Source: Aphelenchoides besseyi (taxonomy: Eukaryota > Nematoda > Chromadorea > Rhabditida > Aphelenchoididae). From it: DNA of 64,000 nt. The notes under the pieces are model-generated. The model saw only the letters and a list, made by a program, of their open reading frames with translations. It searched no databases and was not told where the DNA came from. Within the stretch, counting starts at the first letter, position 1. The number at the start of each line of letters is the position of its first letter. This document shows positions 24,689-29,242 of the stretch, one piece after another. The translations under genes and the position numbers were made by a program. The DNA lies in NCBI GenBank assembly GCA_024699855.1, contig JAMPIQ010000001.1, positions 14,322,001 to 14,386,000 of the forward strand, written 5' to 3'.

Positions 24689-25757
24689 ACTTTTTTCCGT
24701 CCATTCTTGACATTTTTGTTTAAACTTGGTTAAAACAGCAGTTATATAGTTACAATGTGCAGTAGTGTTTTTGCACTGATCGAATAGTCTCAAGTTCAGG
24801 TTTTTGGTTTAAAATGTCCAAACGACAATAAAGTTAAGAGTAAAAGCCATTTAGCCAATCAATAAAAAAACAAGATCAATTAACTGACGATTCTAACTGA
24901 AACCGATTTTTACGATAACTTTCCATTTAGACACAAACTAAACTTCTTTCGATTTGAGCTGATCGCAATCCACGAGTTTAAAAGGTCAACAACGTTTAAT
25001 ATCAAACCAACGACAATGCCGCTTGTTGGAAATCGATCAAAGTAGACAAACATATGCGTCAAAGTTGCCTTGTGTTCTAACAGAATTGTAAGTATTCTGT
25101 TAGTTTTTCTTGTATAACAACAACACAACTTTGTATCCGACTTTCAGTTTGAGGAATGAAATAAGAATATTCATCGAATCTATTCTACTCGTTATCACAC
25201 AGGTAGTGACGAGTTTCCAAGTAAAGCGATGTCTCAGAAATCACTATTAACCAGACATCGTTATTAGTTGATCAGTGACCCTTTAACGAACACAACGGTC
25301 ACACTTAAACGTTCGGTTGACAAAATTCGTGTTTGAGAAACTTCCGTTTAGGTCTGAACACAAAGTCGGAAATAGAATGCTCGTATTTTTACACTTTTGG
25401 TTCACATGCGAGTCGTCGTAGAATAAAGTCAAGACCGAATTACTCGCCTAACTTCCGTACTATTTCGTTAATTAAATTGCCACCCGGTGAATGAACGGTT
25501 TAATTGGTTCGGAGAATAGAAAGATTGTCGCTTAGTGTAGCAACAGATGACCGAGCACGTAGTTCCGTATTCAACCCGGAACAAAATTGTTCGCTGAACC
25601 CTCTAAAGATCGTTGTTTTAACTTACAATTGGCTTTTTGATTGCCAATTACACGAAACTAAAAGACTGGATTGCGAATTTAATGTTCTAGAAATTTGGTA
25701 CTTAAGAGCGATGAGTTGAAAGTCTTCAACAACCCAGCTTTCCAGTCACAATCTAAG
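24689..25757. other. no supported gene
   Basis: About 1.1 kb between the second S28 gene and the YG peptide gene. Short open frames only; the AT-rich sequence near 25640-25740 probably includes the peptide gene's promoter. Confidence 0.5.
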
Positions 25758-26114
25758 ATGTCTTTGATCAACGCAACTGTTCTTCTTGCATTGCTTCTCG
25801 TTATCGGTGCCTTCTTGATTTCAACAACTGAAGCCTATGGATGTAAGTTGACTACGGTTTTATGTTAAAATGACAATTTGTTTTAGATGGTAGAGGATGT
25901 AAGTGGTTTTAGAAGCTTTCGGGTTTTTAATTTATTCTTTCATCAGATGGATACGGCTACGGCGGCGGTTGTAGGTTTTAAATGAGTGTATTAGCATGAT
26001 AAATATTTTTAGACGGTGGATGGGGAGGTTATCGTCGTTACGGTTATGGCGGTTGTGAGTTATCATGATTTAGTTTGCATTCTAATGTTCTTAGATGGCT
26101 ACTACGGTCGTTAA
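25758..26114 (+). CDS. YG-rich secreted peptide, NLP/caenacin-like antimicrobial candidate, 60 aa
   Basis: Five exons: 25758-25842, 25887-25898, 25947-25970, 26013-26054 and 26095-26114, i.e. 85, 12, 24, 42 and 20 nt. All four introns are GT-AG, 40-48 nt, and split the first base of a Tyr codon (phase 1). The signal peptide is LLALLLVIGAFLISTTEA. The mature part is made only of Y, G, R and one W: YGYGRGYGYGYGGG, YGGWGGYRRYGYGG, YGYYGR. This composition is that of nematode YGGW/YGGYG peptides (NLP-29 and CNC groups), induced in epidermis by infection or wounding. Each repeat block sits on its own symmetric micro-exon. Function is inferred from composition, not homology along the length. Confidence 0.8.
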
Positions 26115-26596
26115 TCTCTGCACGTTATCTCAGTGTTCATTCCGAGTGCCAAACGGTTTTTGTGTACCAGAAAATGTACTTATCTTTACATGTTGATATA
26201 TATAAACACATTTAGCATTTGAAACGTATTTAACATTGGAAATCAAACGAAACCGTGAATTCATGACTGAAAACAAGCGACCAATTTATCATCGAAACTC
26301 CCAAAATTGAGATCAAATGGCATTCTCCTACAATTGAAACGGAACTCTTCGATGAGATGGATATATGGTCATTAAGTGAAGGTAGTTAGAGAAGAGGAAA
26401 AGAGCACGAGTCAAAGATGAGGCTAACGAGTGAAGGAAGGTTTCTACACCAAGACGGCCGTTACCGTCCGTCTAGTAGGAAAACGAATTCGAAAACAAAA
26501 GGAATTTCAAATGATCAATTAATATACAGAATGAACAACATATTATCACGGCACAAAAGAAACCGGAATAATGTCTCGTTGAAACATTTCCCTTCA

Positions 26597-27169: not shown

Positions 27170-29242
27170 ATGACAACAAAACCGGCACCGCGTTTCGCGG
27201 ACTTCGACATGGACGAGCGACTTCTGCAGGTTGTAGTTTGATAGAAACTAGTGTTTGAACGGACATTTAGGCCGTTAATGAAATGGGTTGGGAAAAACCA
27301 ACCACCGTCCAAGGTGCCATGATTCCGCAGCTTCTTCAGGGATCAAATATGTGCGCTCGAGCTCGAACAGGAACCGGCAAAACGGGCGCCTTCTTGTTGC
27401 CGTTGATTCAACGGGTTTTGCAATGCACAAACGTGAGTAGACTTGCCAAGAACTTTTCTACTTGGTGGTTTTAGGGGCCTGAAAGTGAACAACTCGATGG
27501 GCCGTTTGCGTTGGTTTTGGCGCCCACCAAAGAATTAGCCAAACAGATTTTCAACGTACTCTCCCAACTAATCGCTCGGTTTCCGTTTTTACAAGCGTTG
27601 AATTTGTCCGAACAAGAAAAAGCGACAGAAGAGTTGGCAATGGAATCCACAATGGACATTTTGATCGCAACACCGGCAAGATTGATCGAAGTGCTGAAGA
27701 AGAAATCGAAGTTGCTGAAGAACGTCAAGTACGTGGTTTTGGACGAAGCAGATCTTTTTGTTTCATACGGTTATCGCGACGATTTGATGTACGTTTAGCA
27801 GTTTTTAATTCTGTTTTTATTTCGTCTTTTCAGACAATTAAAAAAAATACTCCCGTCGAAGTTCCAATCGGTTATGACCTCGGCAACGTTGGAAGAAGAT
27901 CTAAACGAATTAAAGACGATGTTCGCATCCGGAAAAGTCATGTCTTTGAAACTGAAAGTACGTTTACAATCTCGAGTTTTTCTTCTATTTATGAGTTTAG
28001 GAGAGTCAGTTGCCGTCTGCTGATCAGTTGTCTCAATATCATGTGTATGTGGAAAACGACGAAGAGCGATTTGCAATCGTTGTATCACTACTGAAACTCA
28101 AACTGTTGGTCGGAAAAACAATTTTCTTCGTTGGATCTGTGGAACGTTGTTACAAGTGAGTTGACAAGTTGAAGGTCCTTAATATTTTTTTTCAGATTAC
28201 ATTTGTTTCTTCAGGGTTTCAAGATCAAATCGTGTATTTTGAACTCTCAAATGCCGGCAAACAGTCGTTCACATGTGATCAACGAATTCAACGAGGGAAA
28301 GTATCGATACATCATCGCATCTGATGCACGTGATGCAATTGGACCCTCAGAAAATGACGAAGAAGACAAAGAAACAGAAGATACAGAAGGAGCAGTAAGT
28401 TGTATTTGAAATTGCCACGATCACTATTTGTAGTCGTCGAAGAAAAAGAAACGAGCCAAAAAGCAGCGTATTGCATACGACAAAGAATCAGGAGTATCTC
28501 GTGGAATCGATTTTCATTTCGTATCGAATGTCGTCAATTTCGATTTTCCGTCAACTACCGATCTCTACATTCACCGTGTTGGGCGAACGGCTCGCGGTTA
28601 CAATCGCGGAACAGCGATTTCCTTCATTTCACCTCATGAACGTCAGAACTTCGAAAGCGTTCAGGAAGAAATCAATGCTCAGAGTAAGAACAGAGGAAGG
28701 TATTTAATCAACTTGTTTCTAGTGGGCGAGAATGCAATTGCACCCTACGAAGTTCGAATGTCCGACTTCGATGGCTTCTTCCTGAGATCACGTGTAAGTT
28801 CACAAGCTGACATTTTGAGTTTCTATTCTATTTCAGGAAGTGTTGTCTGCAATCACAAAGTCAGTTGTTCGAGAAGCGCGATTATCGGAGATCAAACGAC
28901 AACTGTTGGAGTCGAAACGATTGGAAGCGTATTTCGCTAAGAATCCACGAGAGAAAGAAGCACTGGAAAACGATCGTGGGATGTGCGGCTTGCGACTTTA
29001 CTCCACGGGCATTGCGGATGTTGCCGATTACATGGGTCAGTTTCTGTTGCATATTCAGGCTTATCTTTTGTTTAGTTCCCAAGCCACTACGTGGACAGAA
29101 TTTCAAAACCATCGACGAGACTGGAAGTTCAAATCAACGGGGTCGTCGTGGTCGGAAACGTTCAGCTTTTGGTGGTGCAAGTGGACCGAAACGAAAGTTC
29201 GCTAAGAACAGCAAAAATCCACTACGAACGTTTACGATCTAA
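27170..29242 (+). CDS. ddx-56: DEAD-box RNA helicase DDX56/DBP9, 566 aa
   Basis: Ten exons: 27170-27229, 27271-27432, 27475-27788, 27834-27957, 28001-28155, 28196-28394, 28434-28683, 28723-28793, 28837-29035, 29076-29242. ATG lies directly behind GATTTAG, a likely spliced-leader acceptor. Helicase motifs in order: Q motif GWEKPTTVQ, motif [11 protein letters not shown], Ia APTKELAKQ, Ib [21 protein letters not shown], and [21 protein letters not shown] near the start and the ending LRTFTI behind a basic Arg/Lys/Gly tail are as in DDX56/DBP9, which acts in the nucleolus in assembly of the large ribosomal subunit. The length is close to the human protein. The region before motif VI contains a Lys-rich and an acidic insert. 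Confidence 0.94.

What the first reader, a model, noticed from the sequence alone, without database searches (positions are those of the whole stretch)
25758..26114. YG-rich peptide gene built from symmetric micro-exons of 12, 24, 42 and 20 nt
Each YG repeat block lies on its own tiny exon and every intron splits the first base of a Tyr codon, so blocks could be skipped, gained or duplicated without frame loss. This is a ready-made way to make peptide variants. Known NLP/CNC-type YGGW genes, as I recall them, keep the mature peptide on one or two exons, so the arrangement looks unusual.
Basis: partly seen in the sequence, partly recalled or inferred. Interest (0 to 1): 0.8.

Follow-up and report, generated by a model that had tools for sequence, protein, structure and literature searches.

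The report
Tyrosine-glycine peptide on tiny exons
A nematode carries a pair of small, probably secreted tyrosine-glycine peptide genes whose mature parts are spread over a string of tiny, frame-neutral exons, and the two copies differ by whole exons, so the layout seems to let the peptide change in blocks.

Summary
Gene A (25758-26114, +) has coding exons of 85, 12, 24, 42 and 20 nt and GT-AG introns of 40-48 nt; every intron splits a Tyr codon after its first base. It encodes a likely signal peptide plus 34 residues, 85% Gly/Tyr, with YGGWG. A scan tuned to such chains finds no other in the window, in 200 kb of background or in 100 shuffles. The genome, of Aphelenchoides besseyi type, gave one paralogue, B, on another contig, read here as 88, 9, 30, 42, 30, 18 and 20 nt, all phase 1; exon differences are multiples of three and two exons are extra. 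Two word-based protein searches gave no significant relative. Best reading: an NLP/CNC-like secreted cationic peptide in a micro-exon layout like that of flatworm MEGs and aphid bicycle genes, changing by exon gain and loss between copies. No RNA data were available.

The parts
25250..25757 (+). Upstream region shared with paralogue B (promoter and 5' leader, inferred)
   Evidence: 71% identity over about 500 bp to the region upstream of B, no third match in the genome at E <= 1; 223 of 299 and 158 of 199 aligned bases identical in two sub-stretches; exact blocks at 25282-25300, 25370-25384, 25386-25397 and 25417-25429
25758..25842 (+). Exon 1 (85 nt): likely signal peptide MSLINATVLLALLLVIGAFLISTTEA, then YG and the first base of a Tyr codon
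   Evidence: 74 of 85 aligned bases identical in B. Signal peptide and cleavage site read by eye, no predictor was run
25843..25886 (+). Intron 1, 44 nt, phase 1, GTAAGT...TTTTAG
   Evidence: in-frame stop if retained
25887..25898 (+). Exon 2 (12 nt), Y-G-R-G
   Evidence: 9 nt in B, 6 of 9 aligned bases identical
25899..25946 (+). Intron 2, 48 nt, phase 1
   Evidence: in-frame stop if retained
25947..25970 (+). Exon 3 (24 nt), YGYGYGGG
   Evidence: 30 nt in B, 19 of 24 aligned bases identical
25971..26012 (+). Intron 3, 42 nt, phase 1; holds GCATG at 25994, also present in B intron 3
   Evidence: in-frame stop if retained
26013..26054 (+). Exon 4 (42 nt), YGGWGGYRRYGYGG, with the YGGWG motif
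   Evidence: a YGGWGGY-type pattern matches only A and B genome-wide, backward control 0
26055..26094 (+). Intron 4, 40 nt, phase 1
   Evidence: in-frame stop if retained
26095..26114 (+). Exon 5, terminal coding exon (20 nt), YGYYGR-stop
   Evidence: 18 of 20 bases identical in B, same peptide end
26115..26230 (+). 3' flank / probable 3' UTR shared with B
   Evidence: 90 of 112 aligned bases identical

Best explanation
A and its paralogue B are real genes for small secreted, cationic Gly/Tyr-rich peptides of the NLP/CNC type. Each mature peptide is built from a chain of phase-1 micro-exons that are joined, by default all of them, through intron definition across very short introns. Because every internal exon is a multiple of three in the same phase, exons can be added, lost or lengthened without harm, and the gene pair has changed in that way since duplication. 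Shown: exon and reading-frame anatomy, paralogue, difference in exon number, multiples of three, YGGWG motif, charge and composition. Inferred: secretion, splicing in the animal, constitutive inclusion, a defence or surface role.
For: Exact anatomy and open frame. Paralogue B, read as 7 exons, all phase 1, similar start and same YGYYGR end. Aligned exons 1-3 differ by +3, -3 and +6 nt and the extra exons are 30 and 18 nt, while introns 1-3 differ by -1, -2 and 0 nt. 10 of 10 introns in A and B carry in-frame stops if retained, and all 8 and 32 skip forms stay open. Upstream and 3' flanks are shared. Mature parts: 85% and 73% Gly+Tyr, net charge +4 counting K, R, D and E, no acidic residue. YGGWG and YGGYG are called likely to typify NLP and CNC peptides (PMC6780910, passages). 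Introns of about 40 nt are normal for the one neighbouring gene looked at, and small exons with shorter introns depend less on PRP-40 in C. elegans (PMC8378409, passages).
Against: No transcript or peptide evidence. Introns 1-3 of A and B are 79-84% identical, about as conserved as several exons, so conservation alone does not single out the exons. Exon borders in B were chosen by eye for an open frame; B exon 5 may begin 48 nt earlier and would then not be YG-rich in that part. The genome-wide YG micro-exon pattern matched A and B only, but its backward control also gave 2 matches. Relationship to NLP/CNC rests on composition and a short motif; no significant sequence match was found, and Gly/Tyr-rich stretches arise often.
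Confidence: 0.6

Rival explanations
1. One reading: the micro-exons are cassette exons that are regularly skipped, so one gene yields many peptide variants, as reported for flatworm micro-exon genes.
For: All 8 skip forms of A (34-60 aa) and 32 of B (35-78 aa) stay in frame. A GCATG element lies in intron 3 of both genes; GCAUG as an RBFOX-type site is recalled. Flatworm MEGs are said to use this layout for variant proteins (PMC4350168, passages; PMC7653826, passages).
Against: Introns of 40-48 nt favour intron definition; dependence of small exons on PRP-40 falls with shorter flanking introns in C. elegans. GCATG is shared inside introns that are 79% identical anyway, so it is weak. No transcripts seen.
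Confidence: 0.2
2. A structural Gly/Tyr-rich secreted protein of cuticle, eggshell or gland lining, in which repeat length matters more than exact sequence.
For: Composition of the mature part; repeat length differs between A and B while the style is kept.
Against: Short, cationic and with the YGGWG motif called likely to typify NLP/CNC peptides. Not separable from the best explanation by sequence.
Confidence: 0.15
3. A protein secreted towards the host plant, with a layout convergent with flatworm MEGs and aphid bicycle genes, which are also thought to act at a host interface.
For: Small symmetric exons behind a signal peptide in MEGs (PMC4350168, passages); small internal exons almost all of one phase in bicycle genes, putative gall effectors (PMC9168663, passages, and abstract start). 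The closest named helicase is from Aphelenchoides besseyi, called the rice white tip nematode in a paper title (PMC3956754, listing only).
Against: No gland expression data; only two gene copies found, no large family; bicycle genes have phase-2 exons and on average about 17 exons.
Confidence: 0.12
4. No functional gene: a chance string of splice-like sites or a decayed copy.
For: No significant match in the protein set although named Aphelenchoides proteins are held there. The chain scan was loosened after its first form missed the gene.
Against: No such chain in 6.4 Mb of shuffles or 200 kb of background; second copy with multiples-of-three changes; no stop or frame error in either as read. 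Absence from protein sets is unsurprising, since small exons are described as a challenge for gene finding (PMC7653826, passages).
Confidence: 0.05

Closest known systems
NLP/CNC (YGGWG/YGGYG) antimicrobial-type peptides of nematodes
   Same: Likely signal peptide, short cationic Gly- and aromatic-rich mature part, YGGWG motif, duplicated gene
   Different: Mature part split over 3-5 symmetric micro-exons plus exon 1 end and terminal exon (exon layout of the known genes not tested here); no contiguous array matching the YGGYG-type pattern tried in this genome; no significant sequence match; paralogues on different contigs, not a cluster; induction unknown
Micro-exon genes (MEGs) of schistosomes and tapeworms
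   Same: Small symmetric exons behind a signal peptide; B, as read here, meets the counting rule used for the Hymenolepis genome
   Different: Nematode, not flatworm, and no sequence relation claimed or tested; A fails the counting rule (5 exons, run of 3); B fails it if exon 5 starts at its upstream acceptor; variant transcripts not shown
Bicycle genes of aphids
   Same: Small internal exons in one single phase, putative secreted effectors (PMC9168663, passages; abstract start)
   Different: Phase 1 here, phase 2 there; 5-7 exons against an average of about 17; no sequence relation claimed or tested; two copies found here
PRP-40-dependent neuronal microexons of C. elegans
   Same: Very small exons (27 nt or less there) spliced in a nematode (PMC8378409, passages; abstract start)
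   Different: Those are alternative exons, mainly in neuronal genes, most dependent on PRP-40 when introns are long; here several follow one another between very short introns

Membership tests
NLP/CNC peptides | YGGWG or YGGYG motif | tested here: met
   YGGWG in exon 4 of A and of B; motif rule from PMC6780910, passages
NLP/CNC peptides | Short secreted, basic, Gly- and aromatic-rich peptide | tested here: met
   34 and 52 residues after the presumed signal peptide, net charge +4, Gly+Tyr 85% and 73%; the signal peptide was judged by eye, so secretion itself is inferred
NLP/CNC peptides | Significant sequence relation to known members | tested here: not met
   None of 361 candidates at E <= 0.1 for A alone; with A+B, 15 of 7979 scored candidates at E <= 10, best E 0.061 to a JGI hypothetical protein, a Caenorhabditis FIP-related protein at E 2.8; A has two Pfam hits at E 1.3 and 1.9, far below cut-off, B not scanned. 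The search needs shared 5-residue words, so distant members can be missed
NLP/CNC peptides | Epidermal induction by fungal infection or wounding | not testable with these tools
   No expression data
Flatworm MEG | At least 7 exons, at least half of them under 70 nt and divisible by three, a run of at least 4 (rule of PMC7653826, passage) | tested here: inconclusive
   A not met (5 exons, 3 micro-exons, run 3); B met as read here (7, 5, run 5) but not met with the alternative exon 5 start (7, 4, run 3)
Flatworm MEG | Signal peptide ahead of symmetric small exons | tested here: met
   signal peptide judged by eye
Flatworm MEG | Flatworm lineage | tested here: not met
   Neighbouring helicase is 97% identical over its length to an Aphelenchoides besseyi protein
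Flatworm MEG | Variant proteins by exon skipping | not testable with these tools
   No RNA data; skip forms stay in frame
Aphid bicycle genes | Internal exons almost all of phase 2, minimum of 5 exons | tested here: not met
   All internal exons of A and B, as read, follow phase-1 introns; rule from PMC9168663, passages

The most novel reading that the evidence does not exclude
Nematodes have independently evolved micro-exon genes: a secreted defence-type peptide whose mature part is assembled from interchangeable phase-1 micro-exons, varied between gene copies by exon gain and loss and perhaps also within one gene by regulated skipping.
Probability: 0.25. Interest if true: 0.72.

Novelty: new variant of a known kind. 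Interest (0 to 1): 0.5.

Why it matters
Flatworm MEGs were said to appear restricted to platyhelminths (PMC4350168, 2015, passage), and aphid bicycle genes have a similar layout. A nematode case in a short peptide gene would point to a more general route by which secreted peptides change in blocks, and would suggest that such genes are missed by gene finders in compact nematode genomes. The A/B pair, with whole-exon differences at modest divergence (dS about 0.27 in 28 codons of exon 1), makes the gain-and-loss question testable in other Aphelenchoides genomes.

Tried and rejected
Chance or pseudogene: rejected by shuffles, background and paralogue. The scan was first run with a stricter acceptor rule that missed gene A (40 shuffles then gave two chains of 2 and none of 3); the rule was loosened with the gene in view. 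In the final scan B shows as a chain of 3, since its intron 4 exceeds the 60-nt limit. Exon duplication inside A: none of 6 intron pairs is more alike than shuffles (fraction of shuffles at least as good 0.295-1.0); exons were not compared in this way. Extra members: DNA, protein (matching exon 1 only), upstream DNA, a YG micro-exon pattern and a YGGWGGY pattern each return only A and B; the backward control of the micro-exon pattern also gave 2 matches, that of the YGGWGGY pattern 0. A contiguous YGGYG-type pattern returns 0, backward control 1. A multi-copy intron-making element in B: a 197-base query with all of B intron 4, the end of exon 4, exon 5 and the start of intron 5 matches only itself. 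The 148 bp between the two 14-bp repeats hold an imperfect inverted repeat and a weak resemblance to the reverse strand of B's 3' part (1 of 8 comparisons; 0.002 of 500 shuffles reach it), left unexplained. RNA fold of the gene: nothing unusual, z = 1.20, 91 of 100 shuffles fold at least as well. GATAA sites in the compared upstream stretches: none in either gene. Pfam for A: two sub-threshold hits. Papers: listings for nematode micro-exon genes showed no nematode MEG in the rows seen (20 of 115, 16 of 16, 10 of 209). Organism by paper search on genome size: nothing useful. Genome-wide frequency of single micro-exons: not obtained; in 200 kb of background one place passes the scan as a single micro-exon.

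Full report
What is there. Reading the + strand from 25758 gives an ATG, a 26-residue stretch that looks like a signal peptide, and five coding exons of 85, 12, 24, 42 and 20 nt separated by introns of 44, 48, 42 and 40 nt. All four introns are GT-AG, all lie after the first base of a codon, and all four split codons are Tyr. The product is MSLINATVLLALLLVIGAFLISTTEA followed by YGYGRGYGYGYGGGYGGWGGYRRYGYGGYGYYGR. The mature part has 17 Gly, 12 Tyr, 4 Arg and 1 Trp in 34 residues.

Is it more than chance. A scan for chains of at least three exons of 6-45 nt, each a multiple of three, in one open frame, between introns of 36-60 nt with plausible splice sites, finds this locus alone in the window on both strands, nothing in 20 background stretches of this genome (200 kb, about 0.4% of it), and nothing in 100 dinucleotide shuffles of the window. 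With exons up to 66 nt and a looser donor, window and background give the same; the 10-kb stretch around B added in that run gives only B (no shuffles were run there). The scan is not blind: its first form, with a stricter acceptor rule, missed gene A and was loosened with the gene in view. A pattern for a YG micro-exon after an acceptor has one match in the window, in gene A, and none in 100 shuffles. Retaining any of the four introns meets an in-frame stop. The splice style is that of the one neighbouring gene looked at: a DDX56-type helicase gene from 27170 has 9 introns of 39-45 nt, but exons of 60-314 nt and mixed phases. That model was made by eye; its product is 97% identical over its whole length to one Aphelenchoides besseyi protein and 89% over 91% to another that is annotated as fused to a kinase, which names the likely kind of organism.

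The paralogue. The genome (47.4 Mb, 31 contigs) gave one other copy, B, on contig C3 at about 8664817-8665408, minus strand. I read its exons as 88, 9, 30, 42, 30, 18 and 20 nt and its introns as 43, 46, 42, 135, 48 and 41 nt, all phase 1, with five of six split codons Tyr and one Cys. The protein has 78 residues, again with YGGWG and again ending YGYYGR. Aligned exons 1-3 differ by +3, -3 and +6 nt, and the extra exons are 30 and 18 nt; introns 1-3 differ by -1, -2 and 0 nt. If exon lengths were free, five such changes all divisible by three would be expected about once in 243 (my arithmetic), but B's borders were chosen with an open frame in mind, so this is not a clean test. All six B introns also carry in-frame stops if retained, and all 32 skip forms stay open, as do all 8 of A.

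How the copies changed. Identical bases: exon 1 74 of 85, exon 2 6 of 9, exon 3 19 of 24, introns 1-3 34 of 43, 38 of 45 and 33 of 42, last exon 18 of 20, two upstream stretches 223 of 299 and 158 of 199, 3' flank 90 of 112. Exons are thus not clearly more conserved than introns. Exon 1 has dN 0.10 and dS 0.27 over 28 codons, so point change is modest while the mature part has gone from 34 to 52 residues or the reverse. Two differences stand out. B has an 18-nt exon that A lacks; by eye, in the gapped alignment, the start of A intron 4 resembles the start of B intron 5 and its end the end of B intron 6, as after a whole-exon gain or loss with both ends in introns. Taken whole, A intron 4 matches B intron 5 at 27 of 38 and B intron 6 at 24 of 40 aligned bases; 36 of 40 against the long B intron 4 comes with 95 gap columns and means little. 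And B has two exact 14-bp copies 162 bp apart, one in exon 4 and one across the start of exon 5, with 148 bp between them. A 197-base query with all of that intron matches only itself in the genome. Which state is ancestral cannot be told without an outgroup. B intron 4 also holds an acceptor-like site 48 nt upstream of the one I used; exon 5 would then be 78 nt, still open and in frame, but partly not YG-like.

Genome-wide uniqueness. DNA of the gene, the protein (which matches by exon 1), 518 bases upstream, a pattern for consecutive YG micro-exons, and a YGGWGGY pattern each return A and B only. The backward control of the micro-exon pattern gave 2 matches as well, so that pattern alone is not specific; the YGGWGGY control gave 0. 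A pattern for contiguous YGGYG-type arrays returns none (control 1). These tools score only the best candidates, so this is not proof of absence. A general count of micro-exons in the genome was asked for eleven times and never answered, so I cannot say how rare single micro-exons are here; the 200 kb of background show one candidate place.

Relatives elsewhere. In a 5.8-billion protein set none of 361 candidates matched A at E <= 0.1. With A and B as a profile, 15 of 7979 scored candidates reached E <= 10; the best had E 0.061, and the list includes mite and metagenome Gly/Tyr-rich proteins and, at E 2.8, a Caenorhabditis FIP-related protein. I take none of these as homologues. The search needs shared words and lengths of 33-105 residues. 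Since proteins of three Aphelenchoides species are in that set, the gene seems not to be annotated there in that length range; small exons are described as a challenge for gene finding (PMC7653826, passages).

How it most likely works. The YGGWG motif, size, charge and composition fit the NLP/CNC kind (PMC6780910, passages), and I think a secreted defence or surface peptide is most likely; this step is inference. For splicing, the C. elegans work on PRP-40 (PMC8378409, passages) reports that small exons need that factor more as flanking introns get longer, and that the exceptional micro-exons that do not need it have unusually short introns. With introns of 40-48 nt, I infer that all exons of A are joined by default, so that the frame-neutral layout matters for change over generations more than for variants within an animal. 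B intron 4 (135 nt) is the place where I would look first for alternative forms. A GCATG element in intron 3 of both genes is a lead for regulated splicing and no more, since the introns are similar throughout.

Comparison with known kinds. Flatworm MEGs have most of the coding region in very small symmetric exons and a signal peptide, and were said in 2015 to appear restricted to platyhelminths (PMC4350168, passages). By the counting rule of the Hymenolepis paper (PMC7653826, passages), A fails, B passes as read here and fails with the alternative exon 5. Aphid bicycle genes share the single-phase small exons but in phase 2 and in larger number (PMC9168663, passages). So it resembles these in layout but is shown to be a member of neither; it resembles NLP/CNC peptides in motif and composition, without significant sequence match. 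DeMarco 2010, the founding MEG paper, was not held and is known here only through papers citing it.

Verdict. The feature is real as sequence, sharply defined, and repeated in a paralogue with whole-exon differences. I score it as a new variant of a known kind, of moderate interest.

Noticed in passing
window 27170-29242 (+): DDX56/DBP9-type RNA helicase gene with 9 introns of 39-45 nt; one relative in Aphelenchoides besseyi (P0018) and one in Ditylenchus dipsaci (P0054) are annotated as cyclin-dependent kinase 7 with helicase domains, which may mean that the two genes are neighbours or co-transcribed.
   Followed up: partly
L002 minus strand, B gene positions 272-447 (exon 4 to exon 5): Two exact 14-bp direct repeats 162 bp apart, with an imperfect inverted repeat between them; no second copy in the genome for the 197-base stretch tested.
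   Followed up: partly
L002 minus strand, B intron 4: An acceptor-like site 48 nt upstream of the one used would give a 78-nt exon 5, open and in frame, with a Cys/Lys/Glu-containing addition.
   Followed up: partly
window 25994 and B gene position 240: GCATG in intron 3 of both genes (TGCATG in B), a possible splicing-factor site (RBFOX link recalled).
   Followed up: no
window 25250-25757: About 500 bp of upstream sequence shared with B (71%), with exact blocks of 12-19 bp between 25282 and 25429; no GATAA site in either compared stretch.
   Followed up: partly
window 26095-26114 and last exon of B: Both peptides end in Gly-Arg (YGYYGR), which could serve C-terminal amidation (recalled rule, not tested).
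   Followed up: no
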